In this document: positions 6,239 through 31,828 of the stretch, one piece after another
How positions within the stretch are numbered: the first letter of the stretch is position 1
Layout of the letters: each line of letters begins with the position of its first letter
Origin: Saprospiraceae bacterium
GTDB lineage: Bacteria; Bacteroidota; Bacteroidia; Chitinophagales; Saprospiraceae
Direction of reading: 5' to 3'
Length of the DNA stretch: 64,000 nucleotides
NCBI GenBank assembly: GCA_024103005.1
Contig: JAGFJA010000047.1
Location: 117,787 to 181,786 of the forward strand
Made by a program: the position numbers and the translations under genes
Notes under the pieces: model-generated
What the model saw: only the letters and a program-made list of their open reading frames with translations
Databases searched by the model: none
What the model was told of the DNA's origin: nothing

Positions 6239-6820
6239 ATGGATATATTTAATACTTTATTATCTATCCAAAGTTTTGCAGCTACAATTTCCTTTATTGC
6301 AGGAGCTTTGGTGGTATCAGTAGTAGCATTTTTAATGATTTCATCAAAAAATGTTGAAGAAAAACATCTGGCAAAGGAAAAAGTCTATAAAGTACGGGAT
6401 AAGTACTTTGTCTTCCTTTCTGCCTGCATTGTTGCCGGATTATTCATTTCCCTGAGGCTTCTACCCTATTCTCCGTTTGAAAGCCACCCGGATCAGGAAG
6501 TTACAGTTGTTGCAATGCAATGGGCATGGAAAATGGGCATCGGCAAGACTGACCTTTCACCATCTGAATTTCAGGGAATAAATGAAGTCACGGTTGAATC
6601 CGGAAAACATATCCAATTCTTAGTCACTTCAGCTGATGTGAACCATAATTTTGCTATATATAATAACGCCGGAGACCTGGTTGCTCAAACACAAGCTATG
6701 CCCGGCTATCAGAATAAATTAGATTATATCTTCCCCGAAGCAGGTGAATATCACGTATTGTGTCTGGAATATTGCGGTTTAGCTCACGGCTTCATGACTG
6801 CAACCATTCATGTAAAATAA
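6239..6820 (+). CDS. CuA-containing subunit II of a heme-copper NO reductase (NorS-like)
   Basis: 193-residue electron-entry subunit of a heme-copper enzyme. Two N-terminal membrane helices (about 12-34 and 57-75) precede a periplasmic cupredoxin domain. The CuA site is complete: His136, then CxExCGxxHxxM with Cys175, Glu177, Cys179, His183 and Met186. The aromatic patch QWAWK (94-98) lies where the reduced copper protein normally docks. It takes electrons from a small periplasmic donor, probably the azurin encoded at 12229, and passes them to subunit I, which starts a few bases downstream. Together with the next three genes it reproduces the norSY-senC-orf1 order known from ammonia oxidisers. 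Confidence 0.88.
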   Translation: MDIFNTLLSIQSFAATISFIAGALVVSVVAFLMISSKNVEEKHLAKEKVYKVRDKYFVFLSACIVAGLFISLRLLPYSPFESHPDQEVTVVAMQWAWKMGIGKTDLSPSEFQGINEVTVESGKHIQFLVTSADVNHNFAIYNNAGDLVAQTQAMPGYQNKLDYIFPEAGEYHVLCLEYCGLAHGFMTATIHVK

Positions 6821-6835
6821 AAAAAAGTGGAAAAT

Positions 6836-8317
6836 ATGTCGCAAATTAACTCTACCGATTTTAAGAAACAAAAAAACCTCATCGCTCTTTGGTCATATAC
6901 CTTTTTGATAATTTTCCCCTTGCTGATTATTCTCGGACTTTTAATGAGGCTAAATCAGGGAGAAGTCATAGATTTAGGCATAGATAATTTTTACGTAGTC
7001 ATGACCCTGCATGGTCTTGGCATGGCAGGATTATTGTATAGCATGGCTTTCGGAGCCTTATGGTACCTGCTGGCTTCCAGATATGTCAAACTCAACATCA
7101 AAGTAGGATATTTTATATATACAACGGTGATCATTGGAGTGGTTGGACTAGTTATTGCCACCCTAATAGGAAAATTCGGGGCCGGCTGGTATTTATTATA
7201 CCCACTCCCTTTCAAAGGGACATTCTGGCCAGGTTGGGCTACTGCACTTTCAATTATCTCTTTGATTCTATTGGGAATAGCCTGGCTCATTGGGAATATT
7301 CATGTTGTATATGCCTTAGCTCGAAATTTCGGTGGACTTGCAAATATTATCGGCTGGCAGTATCTTGGGCGAAAAAAGGTTGATACTGAGCTTCCTCCTG
7401 TTGTTTTAATTGCAGCCATCAGTTTAATTCCGGGAGTCATCGCTTTTCTTGCAGGAGCGGTCTTTCTGATTATGTTTCTTTTGCAAAATTTTGAGCCGGG
7501 GTTGAATTTTGATAACCTGTTAGTTAAAAACCTGATATTTTTCTTTGGTCACACCCTGGTAAACATCACATTATACTGCTGCTTAGGCTGGGTTTATGCT
7601 CTTTTACCCGAATACTCTGGCAGAGAATGGAAGGTCAATAAATTATTGGTTTACTCCTGGAATGCAACATTTTTCTTTATCCTTTTTGCATACTTCCATC
7701 ATCTCTACATGGATTTTGTCCAGCCAAAACCTTTGCATATAGCAGGTCAGCTTGCTTCTTACTTCAGCGCTATCCCTGCAACTGCAGTTACCATGTTTGG
7801 TGTCATCAGCCAGATATACCGTTCGAAAATCAGATGGACCATTGTTCCCACTACTTTTCTACTAGGTGTGGCCGGCTGGGCAATAGGCGGTTTTGCAGCA
7901 GTTGTAGATTCCACCATAGCAATAAATAAGATCTTACACAACACCTTATGGGTACCAGCCCATTTCCATACTTATATGCTCACGGGGGTAGTCCTGTTCC
8001 TGCTTGGCTTTTTGTTCCATCTTACACAGACAAAGGACGAGCAAGTGAAAGACAAGCTATCAATTACGGGTTTCTGGACGTTTCTGATTGCCGCACATTG
8101 CTTTGTAGCTTCTTTTTATGCAGGTGGATTGAATAGCATCCCTCGACGTTATTCCGATTACACAGGCATACCCATGGCATCTACTCACTCCACCGGAGCA
8201 ACACTTGCAGCCATTTCGACTATCTTCATTTATATTTTACTAATCGGTTTATTGATTATGTACTTTTCTATATTTAAAAACTTAAGACAATGGTATAAAA
8301 ACCCGAGTAAAACATGA
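6836..8317 (+). CDS. Heme-copper oxidoreductase subunit I, probable sNOR-type nitric oxide reductase
   Basis: Catalytic subunit with 12 or more membrane helices and the full set of metal ligands: His62 (low-spin heme), His242 plus His291-His292 (CuB) and HFH at 379-381 (hemes), numbered from an in-frame GTG at 6827. ATG 6836 is the start I prefer. The key departure is in the helix carrying His242. Oxygen reductases have GHPxVY with a cross-linked tyrosine; here it reads GHTLVN, with Asn246 in the tyrosine position. Loss of that tyrosine is typical of NO-reducing branches of the superfamily. The operon order and neighbouring NO-defence genes support NO reduction. An atypical oxygen reductase cannot be excluded from sequence alone. 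Confidence 0.85.
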   Translation: MSQINSTDFKKQKNLIALWSYTFLIIFPLLIILGLLMRLNQGEVIDLGIDNFYVVMTLHGLGMAGLLYSMAFGALWYLLASRYVKLNIKVGYFIYTTVIIGVVGLVIATLIGKFGAGWYLLYPLPFKGTFWPGWATALSIISLILLGIAWLIGNIHVVYALARNFGGLANIIGWQYLGRKKVDTELPPVVLIAAISLIPGVIAFLAGAVFLIMFLLQNFEPGLNFDNLLVKNLIFFFGHTLVNITLYCCLGWVYALLPEYSGREWKVNKLLVYSWNATFFFILFAYFHHLYMDFVQPKPLHIAGQLASYFSAIPATAVTMFGVISQIYRSKIRWTIVPTTFLLGVAGWAIGGFAAVVDSTIAINKILHNTLWVPAHFHTYMLTGVVLFLLGFLFHLTQTKDEQVKDKLSITGFWTFLIAAHCFVASFYAGGLNSIPRRYSDYTGIPMASTHSTGATLAAISTIFIYILLIGLLIMYFSIFKNLRQWYKNPSKT

Positions 8318-8362
8318 AAGCTAACACCTCAATAAAAAATTTTTAAAAGCAGGCAGGCGGAG

Positions 8363-8986
8363 ATGTTCAAAAAAATATTCATACCCATATTAACATTATC
8401 CCTCTGTCTGCTGCTTTTAAATTTCTGGACTTTAGGATTTTCGTCCTTCACAGTTTTTTCATACACCCTGAAAAAAGCCGGTGTAATACCCAGACCTTTC
8501 CCACCAATTCAACTCATCGACCAGGACAGCAATATTTTTCAGATAAAAGATAAAAAGAAATACAAATTAGTAAATTTTGTATATTTAAATTGTCCCTTTG
8601 TCTGCCATAAGGTCAATAACCAACTAGAGCAAATATATCACAAACTGGACAATGAAACCGTCCCGTCCAGACTGGAATTTATAACCGTCAGCTTTGATCA
8701 GGAAAATGATGATCTTCAAAGAATTATTAGATACAGGAAATACTTCGGTGACAATATATCCGGATGGTCCTTTGCTCTTCCTTACCATTATGACCAAAAA
8801 TCTTTTGATGCATTCTTGAGTAAACTGGGTATCTGGAAATACAAAATTCCATCCACCGGTCTCATCAATCACTCCATTTATATCTTTCTGATAGATACCG
8901 ACAATAACATCATCAAAGTTTTCGATCCAGCAAGGGATACCAATGAAACAATCATTAGCGAAATAAAGGCATGCATAAAAGTTTGA
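8363..8986 (+). CDS. SCO1/SenC-type copper chaperone
   Basis: 207-residue membrane-anchored thioredoxin-fold protein. One N-terminal helix (about 5-25) precedes a SCO domain with the copper motif CPFVC (Cys77 and Cys81, the CxxxC form) and the distal ligand His170 in LINHS. SCO proteins deliver copper to the CuA site of subunit II, which fits the position directly behind the subunit I gene. The 3' end overlaps the next gene by 16 bases, so the two are translationally coupled. A general thiol-redox role is possible but less likely here. Confidence 0.88.
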   Translation: MFKKIFIPILTLSLCLLLLNFWTLGFSSFTVFSYTLKKAGVIPRPFPPIQLIDQDSNIFQIKDKKKYKLVNFVYLNCPFVCHKVNNQLEQIYHKLDNETVPSRLEFITVSFDQENDDLQRIIRYRKYFGDNISGWSFALPYHYDQKSFDAFLSKLGIWKYKIPSTGLINHSIYIFLIDTDNNIIKVFDPARDTNETIISEIKACIKV

Positions 8987-9573
8987 AAAATATCATCAAT
9001 ATAATATCGATACTTATAGGTATATGGTTCATTTCATTCAATTTCAATGAATGGCTGTGCCTAACAATGCAACGACACCAACTCATACAACTCCCGGCAA
9101 TGCTTTTGATTGGATTTATGACAGGATATACATATAGAAAAAATATCAAACCGGATCAGACTATAACAATTTGCATATTAATTTTGACCATATTTTCAAT
9201 TATATTCTGGATGATACCCCGCTCAATTGATCTGGCGGTCATCAATGAAAAATTTAATCGCATCATGCACTTCAATATGCTTATAGCCGGATTTTTCCTC
9301 TATCCCGTCCTTTCCAAAACAGTTCCTGAAATTAAAATTGTCTTCCTGGGCATGATGGCCTCAATGTTAATGGCAGGAGGCATTACACTTAAAACATACA
9401 ATTTGCTGCTTTGCAGTTCATTCACCATTGAGCAGCAAAAGCAAACAGGTCTGATCCTCATCCTGGTTGGCATTACATTATACTTTTTTACGATATTTAT
9501 ATTTCTGCGGGGATTAAAACCGGAAGAACTTAAAGAAAAAGTCAATTTAAACGATAGTATTCATACTCAATGA
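8971..9573 (+). CDS. Polytopic membrane protein of the NO-reductase operon (orf1-like)
   Basis: 200 residues with about six predicted membrane helices and a charged C-terminal tail. Notable residues are RHQLIQLPAML near residue 35, MIPRSID near 80 and a conserved-looking His around residue 99. The start at 8971 lies inside the SCO gene, giving a 16-base overlap. The position after subunit II, subunit I and SenC matches the membrane protein orf1 of norSY-senC-orf1 clusters. A role in copper or heme assembly of the reductase is inferred from context only. Confidence 0.75.
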   Translation: MHKSLKNIINIISILIGIWFISFNFNEWLCLTMQRHQLIQLPAMLLIGFMTGYTYRKNIKPDQTITICILILTIFSIIFWMIPRSIDLAVINEKFNRIMHFNMLIAGFFLYPVLSKTVPEIKIVFLGMMASMLMAGGITLKTYNLLLCSSFTIEQQKQTGLILILVGITLYFFTIFIFLRGLKPEELKEKVNLNDSIHTQ

Positions 9574-10395: not shown

Positions 10396-10679
10396 ATCGA
10401 CCTTTCCGGTGAATTAACTCAAACAAAAAGATGAAAAGAGGGATAATTGTTTCTAAGGCTATTTCTCTCCGGAAATTAAATAAAATTCAGAAAAATAACA
10501 ATTGATTGAGTGGCAAATAAAACTAAATAACTGAATGTTTATTTGGTTGAAAATTCTTACAGGCGATTATTTATCAGGACAACGAAAAGATAATTCTGCT
10601 AAAAAGAAATACAACCAATCTAAATTAAATTATAGGTAAAATGTTCAGTTTCTATTATTTACCATTTAAAATACACAAA

Positions 10680-11450
10680 ATGAAAGTCAACGATTTTTCC
10701 AAAGCTCAGGGTCACTGGATTTTAGCCCGAATGGGGAAAAGAGTGCTCCGACCAGGTGGAAAAGAAATGACAAAAAAATTAATTTCAGCGCTTAATATAT
10801 CGAAAAATGACGATATAGTAGAGTTTGCTCCAGGTCTTGGATACACTGCATCTCTGGCACTAAGCAGCAATCCGAAATCTTATGTAGGAGTTGATTCAGA
10901 TGAAGAAGCAATAGCTGAACTGGAACATAAAATTCACGGACCCAACATCCGTTTTGTCAATCGAAATGCATCAAATACTCCGTTACTGAATGAAACAAAG
11001 GACAAGGTATATGGCGAAGCTATACTTACCATGCATGCTGATCATCGTAAGCTTGAGATCATAAGAGAAGCCCATCGTATTTTGAAAAAAGGAGGCCTAT
11101 ATGCCATCCACGAGTTGGGATTGGATGATGTTGATCAGGAATTGAAGAACAAAATTCAGAAAGAACTGGCTCTTGCCATCAAAGTAAACGCCAAACCACT
11201 CACTCAGGAAGAATGGAGAGAATTACTGGAGCATGAGGGATTTAAGGTTAAAAATTTTTTTATCAACGAAATGCTCCTCCTGGAAATTAAAAGACTCATA
11301 GATGATGAAGGATTCTTCAGGTTTTTAAGAATAGGTATGAACATCCTTTTACACCCTAAAGCCAGAACCAGAATCCTCGAAATGAGAAAAATTTTCAGAA
11401 AGTATCAACATCATATGAATGCCATTGTTATAATAGCTGAAAAGAATTAA
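10680..11450 (+). CDS. Class I SAM-dependent methyltransferase
   Basis: 256-residue Rossmann methyltransferase. Motif I is VEFAPGLGYTASLAL, followed by the acidic YVGVDSDEEAI and the post-motif region ILKKGGLYAIHEL. I choose ATG 10680 (MKVNDFSKAQGHWILARMG). An upstream ATG at 10640 adds 13 unlike residues. The substrate is not evident. It lies 21 bases before the RIC gene, so the two are probably co-transcribed, which hints at a job in recovery from NO or redox stress. Confidence 0.85.
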   Translation: MKVNDFSKAQGHWILARMGKRVLRPGGKEMTKKLISALNISKNDDIVEFAPGLGYTASLALSSNPKSYVGVDSDEEAIAELEHKIHGPNIRFVNRNASNTPLLNETKDKVYGEAILTMHADHRKLEIIREAHRILKKGGLYAIHELGLDDVDQELKNKIQKELALAIKVNAKPLTQEEWRELLEHEGFKVKNFFINEMLLLEIKRLIDDEGFFRFLRIGMNILLHPKARTRILEMRKIFRKYQHHMNAIVIIAEKN

Positions 11451-11471: not shown

Positions 11472-12197
11472 ATGAATATTACAAAAGATAGTGTAATTGG
11501 TGAACTGGTAGCCCAAGACTACAGGACAGCTTCTGTTTTCAAAAAACACAAAATAGATTTTTGTTGTCAGGGACATCGAAGCATTGATGACGCTTGTAAA
11601 AATGAAGACTTATCAAGTGACAAACTTATCTCTCAATTAGAAGAAGCAATCACTCAAAGTAGCGGGACCAACACAGATTTTGCGTCCTGGCCGCTAGACC
11701 TCCTTGCTGATTATGTTGAGAAAAAACACCACCGTTATGTTGAATCAAAAATCCCTGAAATCATCCCATTTCTTGACAAGATAGTAAGGGTACATGGTGA
11801 CAGACATCCCGAATTGCTTGAAATAGCGCAACTTTTTAAAGAATCAGCAGGCGAGTTGAGCGCACATATGAAAAAAGAAGAACTTATTCTTTTTCCGGCG
11901 ATTAGAAAATTAGTACAATCCCATCATTCTGGAACAAGTTTTGAATCACCCATGGGATCTATCAAGAATCCCATCGAGACTATGATGCATGAACATGATG
12001 GTGAAGGTGAGCGATTCCGCAGAATTGCTGAATTGAGTGACAACTATACACCTCCCGCTGATGGATGTACAACTTATCGAGTTACATTTTCTATGCTGAA
12101 AGAATTTGAAGATGACTTACATTTGCATATACATTTAGAAAACAATATTCTGTTCCCTAAATCTATTGCGTTAGAAGAATCGTTATTAACTGTTTAA
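11472..12197 (+). CDS. Iron-sulfur cluster repair di-iron protein (RIC/ScdA/YtfE family)
   Basis: 241 residues with the two-domain layout of RIC proteins. An N-terminal ScdA_N domain contains DFCCQGHRS at residues 29-37. The hemerythrin-like di-iron domain supplies ligands in KKHHRYVE, HMKKEEL, MHEHDGEGE and HIHLENNILF. These proteins repair Fe-S clusters damaged by NO or peroxide and are classic members of NO-response regulons. The gene sits between the methyltransferase and azurin genes with short spacers, suggesting one transcript. Confidence 0.94.
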   Translation: MNITKDSVIGELVAQDYRTASVFKKHKIDFCCQGHRSIDDACKNEDLSSDKLISQLEEAITQSSGTNTDFASWPLDLLADYVEKKHHRYVESKIPEIIPFLDKIVRVHGDRHPELLEIAQLFKESAGELSAHMKKEELILFPAIRKLVQSHHSGTSFESPMGSIKNPIETMMHEHDGEGERFRRIAELSDNYTPPADGCTTYRVTFSMLKEFEDDLHLHIHLENNILFPKSIALEESLLTV

Positions 12198-12228: not shown

Positions 12229-12744
12229 ATGAAAAAATCAATTTTCTTATTTGCTTTAGCTACATTGTTCTTTGCTTCTTGTGGCAATAATGCATCTACT
12301 TCTGACAGTTCCGCTACAGAAAGCACTGATACTGAAATGACCGAAGAAGCTCCTGCAGCTGCTGAAGATGAAGCGATTGTTACGATCAAGGGTGACGATG
12401 CGATGAAATATGATATTACTGAAATCAAAGTAAAGGAAGGTCAGACTGTCAGCTTAACTTTAGTACATACCGGAAAAGCTCCTGTTGCTGCAATGGGACA
12501 CAACTGGGTATTGCTTAAGCAAGGCGTTGATATGGAAAAATTTGCCACAGCAGCCATCAATGCTAAAGATAATGATTACATACCTAAAGATATGGAAGGT
12601 GACGTCATCGCCCATACTAAAACTATTGGTGGTGGTGAAACAACAGACATTGAGTTTACAGCTCCTGCTAAGGGAACTTATGACTTCCTTTGCTCTTTCC
12701 CAGGTCACCATGCGACTATGAAAGGCAAATTTATCGTAGAATAA
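12229..12744 (+). CDS. Azurin, membrane-anchored lipoprotein form
   Basis: 171-residue blue copper protein. A lipoprotein signal with lipobox FASC (Cys18) is followed by a Ser/Thr/Glu/Ala-rich linker (19-48) and an azurin domain. Type 1 copper ligands are visible: His91 in MGHNW, then Cys155, His160 and Met164 in CSFPGHHATM. Azurins carry single electrons in the periplasm and are known donors to denitrification enzymes. Here the likely acceptor is the CuA subunit at 6239. Lipid anchoring with a flexible linker would keep it at a membrane surface. It is followed by two tandem hairpins ending in a T-run. Confidence 0.93.
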   Translation: MKKSIFLFALATLFFASCGNNASTSDSSATESTDTEMTEEAPAAAEDEAIVTIKGDDAMKYDITEIKVKEGQTVSLTLVHTGKAPVAAMGHNWVLLKQGVDMEKFATAAINAKDNDYIPKDMEGDVIAHTKTIGGGETTDIEFTAPAKGTYDFLCSFPGHHATMKGKFIVE

Positions 12745-12770: not shown

Positions 12771-12875
12771 CCGGCTGATTCAGAATCAACCGGATTATAA
12801 AAGCGGAGGCCTATATTCAGGCATTGTGATACATATTTTCACAAATTCTGAATCTGCGCCTACCGCTTTTTATTT
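12771..12875 (+). terminator. Tandem hairpins and terminator after azurin
   Basis: Hairpin one (12771-12793) pairs CCGGCTGATTC with GAATCAACCGG, one mismatch. Hairpin two spans about 12800-12869: AAAGCGG and CCGCTTT form the base, with further pairing arms GGC/GCC, ATTCAG/CTGAAT and TTGTGA/TCACAA inside, followed by T-rich DNA. The last arms overlap an ORF extension that I reject. Confidence 0.7.
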
Positions 12876-12921
12876 TTATATAATTCCCAAAACTATAAAA
12901 AACCGTAGCTGTTATTTTGAT

Positions 12922-13266
12922 ATGATAAAGATAAAAAGAATATATGACACACCTCTGGCTGAAGATGGCTTTAGAGTGCTGGTTGACAGGCTATGGCCGA
13001 GAGGAATCAGTAAAGAGAAAGCCTCCGTCAATGAATGGTTAAAAGATATAGGCCCATCCAATGAATTGAGGAAATGGTTTGGTCATCAACCTGAATTATT
13101 CCCTGAATTTGCACAAAAATATAAGACCGAACTCAACTCAAAGATGGACTTACTGCATTACCTGAAAAATATTTCTGATAAAGAAAACCTGACACTTGTC
13201 TATTCAGCAAAAGACGAATTTCATAATCAAGCAGAAGTAATTTTACAGGTCCTTAATTCTCTTTAG
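12922..13266 (+). CDS. DUF488 family protein
   Basis: 114 residues, starting MIKIKRIYDTPLAEDGFRVL, with the DUF488 signatures VDRLWPRG and WFGHQPELF. I choose ATG 12922. The 32-codon upstream extension would be read from inside the azurin terminator stem and has no family similarity. DUF488 proteins are small cytosolic proteins of unknown biochemical function. Its place between azurin and the DoxX-like gene suggests it belongs to the stress locus, but that is only context. Confidence 0.87.
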   Translation: MIKIKRIYDTPLAEDGFRVLVDRLWPRGISKEKASVNEWLKDIGPSNELRKWFGHQPELFPEFAQKYKTELNSKMDLLHYLKNISDKENLTLVYSAKDEFHNQAEVILQVLNSL

Positions 13267-13857: not shown

Positions 13858-14505
13858 ATGGAACAAATAGAAGTTTATAATGAAATTGACATCATTTACC
13901 GGATAATCCAGGGCGACAAAAAACTTTATGAATTAATTGTGCGCAAATACAATCCGATCTTGTATAAAATAGGAAGATCCTATAACTATAATTTAGAGGA
14001 TACTCAGGACCTGATGCAAGATACCTTTATAGATGCGTACAAAAACCTCAGTCAGTTTGAAGGTAAGTCAAATTTTAAAACATGGATTATCCGGATAATG
14101 ATGAATAATTGTTATCGAAAACGAGAAAAACTCAGCTATAAAAATGAAATCATGCAAGAAATAAACGAACAATCAAATCCACTCTTTTCAAGCAAAAGTA
14201 ACAGCCCTGAACAACTGGTTCAAAACATGGAAATCGGAAATATCATTGAAACGGCCCTGTCTAAATTGCCTGATGAATACAGAATTGTATTTTCATTAAG
14301 GGAAATTAATCATCTAAGTGTTGCCGAAACGTCTTCCTTGCTAAATATTTCAGAATCCAATGTAAAAATTCGGTTAAACCGCGCAAAAAAAATGTTACGT
14401 GATGAAATAGAGAATTCATACCCGGTAAATGAATTATTCGAATTTAACCTGATTTATTGTGATGCCATGGTGAATAGAGTAATGAATGCCATTGATAAGC
14501 TGTGA
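13858..14505 (+). CDS. ECF-family RNA polymerase sigma factor
   Basis: 215 residues. Region 2 (about 12-85) includes DLMQDTFIDAYKNLSQFEGK and WIIRIMMNNCYRKR. Region 4 (about 138-185) includes LPDEYRIVFSLREI and the helix-turn-helix SVAETSSLLNISESNVKIRL. A C-terminal tail of about 30 residues (LFEFNLIYCDAMVNRV) carries a cysteine. No recognisable anti-sigma gene adjoins it, so activity may be set by transcription or by the tail. The next gene begins 4 bases after its stop. It may direct transcription of part of the NO locus, an inference from linkage. Confidence 0.92.
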   Translation: MEQIEVYNEIDIIYRIIQGDKKLYELIVRKYNPILYKIGRSYNYNLEDTQDLMQDTFIDAYKNLSQFEGKSNFKTWIIRIMMNNCYRKREKLSYKNEIMQEINEQSNPLFSSKSNSPEQLVQNMEIGNIIETALSKLPDEYRIVFSLREINHLSVAETSSLLNISESNVKIRLNRAKKMLRDEIENSYPVNELFEFNLIYCDAMVNRVMNAIDKL

Positions 14506-14509
14506 TAAA

Positions 14510-15151
14510 ATGTTAAAAACTATTTCCATCAATTCGAATGCCGCGTCTTCAATAGAACAAAAGCAAGGTTCCGAACCCAAACCATATTCTGATAAAAATG
14601 AAAAAATCAATAAGATAGCATTTCATTTTTCTCAGATTATGGAGACGCTCGGACTTGACCTGGAGGATGACAGCCTGAAGGACACCCCAGAGCGGGTAGC
14701 AAAAATGTTTGTAAATGAGACATTCAGTGGTCTGAATCCTGAAAACAAGCCTAGTATAAGTTTGTTTGAAAATAAATACCACTATCACGAGATGCTGGTC
14801 GAAAAAGATATTACCCTATATTCCTGCTGTGAACATCACTTTGTTCCGATTATTGGAAAGGTTCATGTAGCCTATTATCCGGGTAAGCATGTAATCGGAC
14901 TATCTAAAATAAATAGGATTGTACAGTATTATGCACACCGGCCGCAAGTTCAGGAGAGGTTGACTATCCAGATTGCTGATGCCATAAAGGAAATACTAAT
15001 GCACGATGATGTTGCCGTAATTATTGAGGCGGATCACCTTTGTGTGGCTTCCAGAGGAATAAAAGATACCAACAGCAAGACGACGACTTCATCTTTTTCA
15101 GGTAAATTTAAAACTGATTTTGCAAAAAAGGAGTTTATTTCATATATTTGA
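14510..15151 (+). CDS. folE: GTP cyclohydrolase I (copy A, in the NO/ECF operon)
   Basis: 213 residues. It converts GTP to 7,8-dihydroneopterin triphosphate, the first step to folate and biopterin. The zinc and active-site motif reads YSCCEHHFVP, with the third zinc ligand in HLCVASRG and the catalytic QERLT segment present. I choose ATG 14510; the ORF extends to 14486 inside the sigma gene. It differs clearly from the copy at 31253 ([18 protein letters not shown]) and has a longer N-terminus. It follows the sigma gene by 4 bases and precedes the flavin reductase by 13, so its expression is tied to that operon. Confidence 0.93.
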   Translation: MLKTISINSNAASSIEQKQGSEPKPYSDKNEKINKIAFHFSQIMETLGLDLEDDSLKDTPERVAKMFVNETFSGLNPENKPSISLFENKYHYHEMLVEKDITLYSCCEHHFVPIIGKVHVAYYPGKHVIGLSKINRIVQYYAHRPQVQERLTIQIADAIKEILMHDDVAVIIEADHLCVASRGIKDTNSKTTTSSFSGKFKTDFAKKEFISYI

Positions 15152-15164
15152 AAAAAATAGTATA

Positions 15165-15833
15165 ATGAGCAACTTAGTTAAAATAACATCAATAGAACCA
15201 ATTACCCATGATGTTTACCGCATCCGAGCTGAAAAACCTGACGGTATCGAATATCGACCGGGACAAGCAGTGGACATTTCGCTGAATAAAGAAGGATGGA
15301 ATGATGAAATCAGGACTTTTACTTTTACATCAATCCCAAGTGATGATTTTATAGAATTTACCATAAAAACTTATCCCGGACACAATGGAGTAACCAACCA
15401 GATTAGATCTTTAAAAGCCGGAGATGAAATATATCTTTATGACATCTATGGAGACATTGAATATAAAGGTGAAGGGGTTTTTATAGCCGGTGGCGCCGGA
15501 ATTACTCCTTTCATAGCTATATTAAAAAAACTGGAGAAAGAAAACCAAATCGGAAATAATAAATTGATTTTTGCAAACAAATCAAAGGCTGACATAATTG
15601 ATGCATCTAAATTCGATAAATTACTTGGCAGCCAATTTATCAATGTTCTTTCTGATGAAAATATCCCTGGATTTGAACATGGGTTTATTACACCTGAAAT
15701 AATCAAAAAACATTCGTCGGATTTAAATCAATATTTTTACCTGTGCGGACCGCCTCCTATGATGGATGCTGTATTGAAGCACCTTGCTTCACTTGGGGTA
15801 AAGGAAGAAAATATCGTAAAAGAAGGTTTTTAA
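15165..15833 (+). CDS. FAD/NAD(P)H-binding oxidoreductase (ferredoxin reductase-like)
   Basis: 222 residues. The FAD-binding barrel carries RPGQAVDISL and RTFTFTS, and the NAD-binding domain carries GGAGITPFIA and CGPPPMM. This is the flavin reductase module found in ferredoxin reductases and flavohemoglobins, without a globin or iron-sulfur domain attached. It would move electrons from NAD(P)H to an unknown partner. Start ATG 15165 is chosen; the 15-codon extension overlaps folE. It is the last gene of the putative ECF operon. Confidence 0.9.
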   Translation: MSNLVKITSIEPITHDVYRIRAEKPDGIEYRPGQAVDISLNKEGWNDEIRTFTFTSIPSDDFIEFTIKTYPGHNGVTNQIRSLKAGDEIYLYDIYGDIEYKGEGVFIAGGAGITPFIAILKKLEKENQIGNNKLIFANKSKADIIDASKFDKLLGSQFINVLSDENIPGFEHGFITPEIIKKHSSDLNQYFYLCGPPPMMDAVLKHLASLGVKEENIVKEGF

Positions 15834-31252: not shown

Positions 31253-31828
31253 TTAACGGATTAATTTCAAAAATTCATTTCGCGTTTCGACATTTCTGAA
31301 TTCTCCTGTAAAAGCAGAAGTCGTGGTGGTACTGTTCTGTTTTTGCACACCCCGCATCATCATACACATGTGTGAGGCTTCAATAACTACGGCAGCACCA
31401 TGAGGTTTCAATGTTTCATCAATAACATCCAGGATTTCTTTTGTTAACCTTTCCTGAACTTGTAATCTGCGAGCAAAAACATCTACTACTCTGGGTAATT
31501 TACTCAAGCCTACGATGTGATCTTTCGGTATATAGGCAATATGAGCTTTACCAAAAAAGGGAAGCATATGATGTTCGCACAAGGAATATACTTCAATATC
31601 CTTAACGATGATCATTTCATTATAAGATTCATTAAACATGGCTGATTCCAGTATTTCTCTGGCATTCATCCTATACCCGCTTGTAAGGAATTCAATCGCC
31701 TTAGCTGCTCTTTTGGGCGTTTTAATTAATCCTTCTCGTCTTACGTCTTCTCCGGTCAAGCCAATGATTTCCTGATAATTATTTATTAATTCAGCGATCT
31801 TCCCTGGCTGATCATCCAGATACTCCAT
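31253..31828 (-). CDS. folE: GTP cyclohydrolase I (copy B, housekeeping type)
   Basis: 191 residues with the canonical motif [21 protein letters not shown], third zinc ligand in HMCMMMRG, and QERLT. It makes dihydroneopterin triphosphate for folate. It looks closer to the common bacterial FolE sequence than the copy at 14510. It is convergent with the Gfo/Idh gene (6 bases between stops) and monocistronic. Confidence 0.95.

What the first reader, a model, noticed from the sequence alone, without database searches (positions are those of the whole stretch)
6239..9573. NorSY-SenC-orf1-like cluster: a CuA nitric oxide reductase with Asn in place of the active-site Tyr
Seen: a complete CuA subunit, a subunit I with all metal ligands but GHTLVN where oxygen reductases have GHPxVY, then SCO and a membrane protein. 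Known: sNOR, described from ammonia oxidisers as norSY-senC-orf1, belongs to newly defined NO-reducing heme-copper families. Inferred: this Bacteroidota reduces NO with such an enzyme.
Basis: partly seen in the sequence, partly recalled or inferred. Interest (0 to 1): 0.8.

Follow-up and report, generated by a model that had tools for sequence, protein, structure and literature searches.

The report
CuA nitric oxide reductase in Bacteroidota
A Bacteroidota genome carries a four-gene cluster for an enzyme that has all the heme- and copper-binding residues of an oxygen-respiring oxidase but an asparagine in place of the oxidase's key tyrosine, and it groups with the little-studied sNOR family, so it is predicted to turn toxic nitric oxide into nitrous oxide even though its relatives in databases are named as ordinary oxidases.

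Summary
Window 6239-9573 encodes a CuA subunit (193 aa), a heme-copper subunit I (496 aa) with all six histidine ligands and FGHTLVN, a SCO protein and a 200-aa membrane protein. In a 46-row tree subunit I falls with Ruegeria (formerly Silicibacter) pomeroyi sNOR at 100/100 support, outside B-family oxygen reductases (AU p 7e-40) and eNOR-like rows. The gene order is norSY-senC-orf1. Gene sizes and helix counts match Bacillus "qCuANOR type II". So the reading as an sNOR-type NO reductase is supported. NO reduction itself is inferred: PMC11388526 lists sNOR as proposed, not biochemically characterised. bNOR and Nitrosomonas NorY rows could not be obtained.

The kind is known; this is a new member. 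Added value: three of three genomes of the genus in the sample keep the cluster with a RIC Fe-S-repair gene and an azurin gene downstream; the family is rare in Bacteroidota (7 of 395 sampled genomes) but recurs in several phyla; the same genome has NirK, an eNOR-like enzyme and a NorCB-like pair with an unusual active site, and no detected NosZ.

The parts
6239..6820 (+). NorS-like subunit II: two N-terminal hydrophobic helices and a CuA cupredoxin domain (CLEYCGLAHGFM)
   Evidence: best-scoring solved relatives are CuA domains of cytochrome c oxidase subunit 2, ba3-type among them
6827..8317 (+). NorY-like subunit I, heme-copper superfamily; likely start ATG 6836 (493 aa); model with 12 long helices, pLDDT 90.4
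7544..7564 (+). FGHTLVN: CuB ligand His242 and Asn246 in place of the cross-linked Tyr
8363..8986 (+). SCO/SenC-type copper chaperone with CxxxC
8971..9573 (+). orf1-like membrane protein, overlaps the SCO gene by 16 bases; W-x-x-P-x-S-x-D motif and Cys148 invariant in 35 aligned rows; no PDB fold match at E 0.001
10641..11450 (+). methyltransferase-domain protein, conserved downstream in the genus
11472..12197 (+). RIC-type di-iron Fe-S cluster repair protein (link to nitrosative stress recalled), conserved downstream in the genus
   Evidence: TIGR03652 249.9 bits over cut-off 204.7
12229..12744 (+). azurin-type blue copper protein, a candidate electron donor to CuA (inferred)
   Evidence: TIGR02695 109.6 bits over cut-off 105.1
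12826..13266 (+). DUF488 protein; relatives near RIC or sNOR-type genes in some other loci
13858..15833 (+). sigma-70 factor, GTP cyclohydrolase I and FAD/NAD reductase trio; relatives recur near sNOR-type genes in Lutibacter L080 (all three) and genome G116 (reductase)

Best explanation
The cluster encodes a two-subunit CuA heme-copper enzyme that groups with the sNOR family and is predicted to reduce two NO to N2O, with its copper likely put in by the SCO and orf1 proteins encoded beside it. Shown: the heme and CuB histidines, the complete CuA site, Asn instead of the Tyr of oxygen reductases, the clade with Ruegeria sNOR, the norSY-senC-orf1 gene order. Inferred: electrons likely enter from a periplasmic donor (the azurin encoded 2.7 kb downstream is the best candidate) to CuA, pass to the low-spin heme in subunit I and on to the high-spin heme/CuB centre, where NO is reduced; lack of the cross-linked tyrosine, which oxygen reductases use as an extra electron and proton source (recalled), favours NO over O2. 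Physiological role, inferred: removing NO made by the cell's own NirK or by neighbours in nitrogen-removing sludge, together with the RIC repair protein.
For: Ligands and Asn. CuA. Clade: 34 Asn rows incl. Ruegeria at 100/100, window with L021 97/91, 46-row careful tree; the 101-row quick tree agrees. ba3 grouping rejected, p 7e-40. PMC8756737 Table A4 gives Asn for sNOR and names Silicibacter; Silicibacter pomeroyi resolves to Ruegeria pomeroyi and its locus has subunit II, I, SCO, hypothetical in that order. orf1 found by profile in 46 of 83 loci incl. window and Ruegeria. Sizes 193/496/207/200 aa against 519/1482/606/582 bp for Bacillus type II with 12 and 2 helices. NO context: MT-RIC-azurin downstream in 3 of 3 genus genomes, the window's included; RIC in 8 of 82 other loci (2 of them the congeners; 955,777 bases), expected 0.24 to 0.96 at 1 to 4 copies per 4 Mb, p 2e-10 to 7e-6 if loci were independent. 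6 of 6 other family-positive Bacteroidota genomes of the phylum sample have subunit II and SCO beside subunit I. NirK in the genome over cut-off.
Against: No activity data; PMC11388526 lists sNOR as proposed only. No bNOR, gNOR, nNOR or Nitrosomonas NorY row in the tree, so the family name rests on one anchor group (Ruegeria, 34 percent identity). Holding the window's clade and the Ruegeria group together without group II and T. roseum is rejected (p 0.005), so the window is no closer to the anchor than group II is. PMC3475470 attaches the name sNOR to type I and says close homologues of type I, with the same cluster order, occur in Nitrosomonas eutropha; if so, the ammonia oxidisers' enzyme could be nearer type I than the window, although PMC11388526 says bNOR (formerly CuANOR) has so far been found only in Bacillota. 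Asn alone does not separate sNOR from bNOR. FNR/DNR-type boxes with up to one mismatch: 14 in the window against 17 expected, none within the cluster or just upstream. RIC presence is not enriched among family-positive Bacteroidota genomes (5 of 7 against 173 of 388, p 0.25). The 101-row tree warns that long branches meet, the Ruegeria group with T. roseum among them.
Confidence: 0.77

Rival explanations
1. It is a member of another Asn-type NOR family (bNOR, or possibly the proposed nNOR), not sNOR proper; the chemistry would be the same.
For: Asn is printed for both sNOR and CuANor/bNOR (PMC8756737 Table A4). The tree has three Asn branches (Ruegeria group with T. roseum, group II, window clade), and only the first has a named anchor. 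PMC3475470 puts the Nitrosomonas eutropha enzyme with type I.
Against: bNOR (qCuANOR type I) is described with a longer 13-helix subunit I (1707 bp), one-helix subunit II and a 46-aa extra subunit. The window has 496 aa with 12 long helices and two hydrophobic segments in subunit II. Four ORFs of 26 to 66 aa overlap the stretch upstream; they were not compared with the 46-aa subunit.
Confidence: 0.13
2. It is a terminal oxidase that works without the cross-linked tyrosine (an oxygen reductase misread as NOR).
Against: The Asn is near-invariant over several phyla; the ba3 grouping is rejected; NO-stress genes recur beside some members. By my reading of their motifs the genome already has an aa3-type and a cbb3-type oxidase (L001, L002).
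Confidence: 0.07
3. It has lost catalysis and serves as an NO or O2 sensor or is decaying, as two relatives that lost CuB ligands might be.
For: L051 and L052, inside the window's clade, lack one or two CuB histidines, and SCO and orf1 were not found there; P0084 lacks two ligand histidines.
Against: The window keeps all ligands, an open frame, SCO and orf1; orthologues at 81 and 72 percent identity stand in two congeners.
Confidence: 0.03

Closest known systems
sNOR (norSY-senC-orf1) of ammonia oxidisers and Ruegeria (Silicibacter) pomeroyi
   Same: CuA subunit II, subunit I with Asn for Tyr, SCO, orf1 in the same order; 100/100 clade with the Ruegeria protein
   Different: 34 percent identity to the Ruegeria protein; Ruegeria has an Rrf2 gene upstream, none of the ten window proteins scanned is one; the window's cluster is followed by MT-RIC-azurin; Nitrosomonas sequence not compared
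qCuANOR type II of Bacillus azotoformans (BAZO_04695-04710; PMC3475470)
   Same: gene sizes, order, 12-helix subunit I, 2-helix subunit II, SCO, small membrane protein, Asn
   Different: known here only from passages of the paper; sequence not compared; listed there as putative
bNOR / qCuANOR type I (Bacillus azotoformans, purified)
   Same: CuA, Asn for Tyr, SCO and a membrane protein in the cluster
   Different: 13 helices, one-helix subunit II, extra 46-aa subunit (from PMC3475470 passages)
eNOR
   Same: CuA heme-copper NOR family; one eNOR-like copy lies elsewhere in the same genome (L003)
   Different: Gln at the Tyr position, separate clade at 100/100
ba3-type oxygen reductases
   Same: heme-copper fold, CuA, six histidines
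   Different: Tyr at the active site; joint clade rejected

Membership tests
sNOR | six histidine ligands of the heme-copper superfamily | tested here: met
sNOR | Asn at the position of the cross-linked Tyr | tested here: met
   criterion from PMC8756737 Table A4; shared with bNOR
sNOR | CuA cupredoxin subunit II encoded next to subunit I | tested here: met
sNOR | gene order norS-norY-senC-orf1, orf1 homologous to that of a named sNOR cluster | tested here: met
   orf1 profile reaches Ruegeria orf1 at 6e-9; Nitrosomonas orf1 not compared
sNOR | clade with a named sNOR subunit I | tested here: met
   with Ruegeria (Silicibacter) 100/100
sNOR | clade with Nitrosomonas NorY | not tested
sNOR | no proton channel | tested here: inconclusive
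   the ba3 Y244 position is Val/Leu/Ile in 34 of 34 rows, the Y248 position is Tyr in 34 of 34 (ba3 residue numbers recalled)
sNOR | NO reductase activity | not testable with these tools
   needs the expressed complex
bNOR (qCuANOR type I) | 13-helix subunit I and one-helix subunit II | tested here: not met
   12 long helices in the model, two hydrophobic segments in subunit II; criterion from PMC3475470
bNOR (qCuANOR type I) | clade with B. azotoformans subunit I | not tested
   sequence not reached
ba3 / B-family oxygen reductase | cross-linked Tyr | tested here: not met
   Asn246
ba3 / B-family oxygen reductase | groups with B-family oxygen reductases | tested here: not met
   AU p 7e-40
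eNOR | Gln at the Tyr position | tested here: not met
   Asn246; four eNOR-like rows have Gln

The most novel reading that the evidence does not exclude
The window belongs to a large, unstudied branch of Asn-type CuA NO reductases, found in Bacteroidota, Verrucomicrobiota, Spirochaetota, Acidobacteriota, Myxococcota, Aquificota and Pseudomonadota, that works as an NO-removal module, in this genus with a RIC repair protein and an azurin donor, and whose orf1 is a new CuB-assembly factor: it comes and goes with SCO (45 of 52 rows of the branch have both, 6 neither, 1 SCO only), also in two members that lost CuB histidines.
Probability: 0.35. Interest if true: 0.6.

Novelty: new member of a known kind. 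Interest (0 to 1): 0.4.

Why it matters
No NCBIfam model claims this subunit I over its cut-off and its named relatives are called cytochrome c oxidase, so the NO-reducing and N2O-forming capacity of sludge Bacteroidota is likely undercounted. The genus includes Ca. Parvibacillus, reported as abundant in deammonification plants (PMC9304909), where NO and N2O matter. The window's genome shows NirK and several heme-copper enzymes without the oxidase tyrosine but no detected NosZ, which would make it an N2O source, while its two congeners have NosZ.

Tried and rejected
ba3-type oxygen reductase: rejected by tree and AU test. eNOR: rejected by residue and tree. NosZ as explanation for the CuA hit: the two TIGR04246 hits in the genome lie on the two CuA subunits and are below cut-off.

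Regulation: no FNR/DNR-type box excess; promoter and terminator scans at background. Rrf2 seeds matched 6 and 7 of the other loci, the first seed's own locus counted in both; window rows were not printed in that call.

orf1 identity: no PDB fold match at E 0.001; profile comparison with the T. roseum 'cytochrome c oxidase assembly protein' gave probability 1.3; Pfam DUF1404 matches 20 of 41 members and Caa3_CtaG 13 of 41 at E up to 0.01, the window's own below the curated cut-offs. CtaG kinship is a lead, not shown.

bNOR and Nitrosomonas anchors: sought with protein searches seeded by the window, Ruegeria and a Rhodocyclaceae protein, plasmid records and the genome scan. No row listed was named Nitrosomonas; many rows have no name and the lists are capped, so this is no evidence of absence. 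No NOR chain is among the 50 structure rows shown, which says nothing about kinship.

Rows left out: three rows (own NorB-like, own cbb3, Ruegeria cbb3) before the 101-row tree; 46 of those 101 rows kept and 55 left out in the careful tree, the CuB-less pair and L066 among those left out. One search read L105 in a wrong frame; one search uses its annotated coordinates. L111 (Parasedimentitalea) was fetched and not used.
Full report
Observation. Four genes lie on the + strand at 6239-9573: a CuA subunit II, a heme-copper subunit I, a SCO protein and a small membrane protein. The CuA loop reads CLEYCGLAHGFM; the full CxExCxxxHxxM motif is present in 80 of 80 loci where a subunit II was found, the window included. 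Subunit I has His at 62, 242, 291, 292, 379 and 381 and Asn at 246, where three A-family and five B-family oxidase rows have Tyr and four eNOR-like rows have Gln. Six histidines are complete in 80 of 83 locus rows; the exceptions are L023, L051 and L052.

Relatives. A protein search gave 1833 hits, 120 listed; those with names are called cytochrome c oxidase, mostly cbb3-type, of Chitinophagaceae, Bacteroidetes, Ignavibacteria, Ginsengibacter and Crocinitomicaceae. A genome scan gave 438 relatives, the best 80 kept. Of 60 genomes of the family and order, the window's included, three have a strong match (100, 81 and 72 percent identity, all one genus); the other 57 have none above 48.6 bits. 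In an even sample of the phylum 7 of 395 genomes, the window's included, have the family at E 1e-60; in all 6 others subunit II and SCO lie beside subunit I and in 3 of 6 orf1 as well.

Tree. In a 46-row tree (IQ-TREE, bootstrap/SH-aLRT) the 34 Asn rows form one side of a 100/100 branch that holds Ruegeria pomeroyi; eNOR-like rows (100/100) and B-family oxygen reductases (99/98) lie on the other side. A quick tree of 101 rows agrees, with a warning about long branches. Holding the window together with the B-family oxidases is rejected (p 7e-40); so is holding all Asn rows with the B-family oxidases without eNOR (p 0.007), and the window's clade with the Ruegeria group without group II and T. 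roseum (p 0.005). Bacteroidota appear in two branches: the window's clade and a Flavobacteriaceae/Ferruginibacter/OLB9 branch in group II. Verrucomicrobiota and Spirochaetota rows sit inside the Bacteroidota-rich clade; this suggests transfer between phyla, but these are metagenome-assembled genomes and mis-binning is possible.

Anchor to what is known. PMC8756737 (passages and Table A4 seen) gives Asn for sNOR, listing Betaproteobacteria, Silicibacter, Deinococcus and Geobacillus, and Asn also for CuANor of Bacillus. Silicibacter pomeroyi is Ruegeria pomeroyi. Its megaplasmid locus reads subunit II, subunit I, SCO, hypothetical protein, formate/nitrite transporter, with an Rrf2 regulator upstream and a haoB gene farther along. 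The hypothetical protein is a homologue of the window's orf1 (6e-9 by profile). PMC4940428 (passages) names norSY-senC-orf1 in ammonia oxidisers. PMC3475470 (passages) describes two Bacillus CuA NORs with Asn: type I (13 helices, one-helix subunit II, extra 46-aa subunit; the purified enzyme) and type II (12 helices, two-helix subunit II, genes of 519, 1482, 606 and 582 bp). The window (193, 496, 207, 200 aa; 12 long helices in the model, two hydrophobic segments in subunit II) matches type II. Against a simple equation, that paper attaches the name sNOR to type I and says close homologues of type I occur in Nitrosomonas eutropha; PMC11388526 (passages) separates bNOR (found only in Bacillota) from sNOR, and lists cNOR, qNOR, bNOR and eNOR as biochemically characterised and sNOR, gNOR and nNOR as proposed. 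Murali 2024 itself was not held; I know it only through these citations.

Neighbourhood. In the window and both congeners the cluster is followed by methyltransferase, RIC and azurin genes. RIC occurs in 8 of 82 other loci, two of them the congeners; at 1 to 4 copies per 4 Mb 0.24 to 0.96 would be expected in these 955,777 bases, p 2e-10 to 7e-6 if the loci were independent, which they are not fully. The window's sigma factor, GTP cyclohydrolase I and reductase trio, DUF488 and RIC all have relatives in the Lutibacter locus L080 around its group II enzyme. In genome G116 a relative of that reductase lies 0.3 kb upstream of the cluster, and in G288 RIC and DUF488 lie within 2.7 kb of the end of orf1. 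The reductase is present at E 1e-60 in 43 of 395 sampled genomes, in 4 of the 7 with the enzyme against 39 of 388 without, p 0.003. NosZ is present in 5 of 7 against 123 of 388, p 0.04. RIC presence is not enriched, 5 of 7 against 173 of 388, p 0.25. These tests ignore relatedness. NirK and cNorB seeds matched none of the 82 loci. I take the neighbourhood as support for an NO role, not as proof.

SCO, orf1 and CuB. In the window's clade of the large tree (52 rows) 45 have SCO and orf1, 6 have neither, 1 has SCO only. Those with neither are the Pseudomonadota rows L068, L069, L077, L098, which keep their CuB ligands, and the pair L051, L052, which lost CuB histidines. L068 and L051 are short contigs. 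All 29 rows of group II have SCO and none has orf1, so orf1 is not needed by the whole family. This points to a copper-assembly role of orf1 in this branch but rests on two or three events.

The genome. Five heme-copper catalytic subunits, labelled here by motif and neighbours: an aa3-type (L001), a cbb3-type (L002), an eNOR-like one with Gln (L003), the window's enzyme, and a NorCB-like pair (L005) near NirK. No NosZ was found in the window's genome by PF18764, one each in the congeners; no NrfA by PF02335 in the three. PMC9304909 (passages) reports norBC in 1 of 8 and nosZ in 8 of 8 Ca. P. calidus genomes; the passages seen do not mention sNOR. My searches of the held papers showed no description of sNOR in Saprospiraceae; supplementary tables were not seen and PMC12569097 (passages) classified NOR types over many genomes, so I do not claim it is unreported.

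Verdict. An sNOR-type CuA nitric oxide reductase cluster in a Bacteroidota genome, new member of a known kind. Membership is supported by ligands, gene order and one named anchor group; NO reduction, azurin as donor and orf1's role are inferred.

Noticed in passing
L003 (G000:C46:58918-60285), own genome: eNOR-like subunit I (GHSSQQ) with a CuA plus C-terminal cytochrome-c-like subunit II and a SCO gene; the helix X ligand pair reads HFK, Lys where the low-spin heme His is expected, as in Thermus plasmid pTF24b (L103), while two other eNOR-like rows have His. The congener G002 has an undetermined residue there.
   Followed up: partly
L005 (G000:C36:99634-100854) and L127 (G002): NorC plus NorB-like pair, near NirK in the window's genome (L020); aligned to solved NorB 4xyd, the HLWVEGTWE stretch (FeB His and active-site Glu, recalled) faces GSMV-GGWN, so His and both Glu are missing, and the same letters stand in both species; about 25 percent identity to plasmid NorB proteins. 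Not a standard cNOR.
   Followed up: partly
L051:3-1466 and L052:5896-7434: Members of the window's clade that lost one or two CuB histidines and the Asn (Ser or Thr); SCO and orf1 not found on the stretch held; CuA is intact in L052 (L051 starts inside subunit I); L051 has NosZ about 4 kb downstream.
   Followed up: partly
L023 (CP058702, Ca. Parvibacillus calidus): CuB ligand His is Arg (CGC, one base from CAC); a 94 percent identical database protein P0003 has His, so a sequence error or a single-strain change is likely.
   Followed up: yes
window 14486-15151 and 31253-31828: Two GTP cyclohydrolase I genes; the first sits between a sigma-70 factor and a FAD/NAD reductase, a trio also seen near a group II enzyme in Lutibacter L080.
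   Followed up: partly
L150 (G189:C1:3388000-3407000): In another Bacteroidota genome relatives of the window's methyltransferase, DUF488, reductase and RIC lie within about 13 kb of NosZ, far from that genome's sNOR-type genes.
   Followed up: no
L105 (Deinococcus psychrotolerans plasmid): B-family subunit I with GHAIVY (Tyr kept, Pro lost), annotated as cbb3-type.
   Followed up: no
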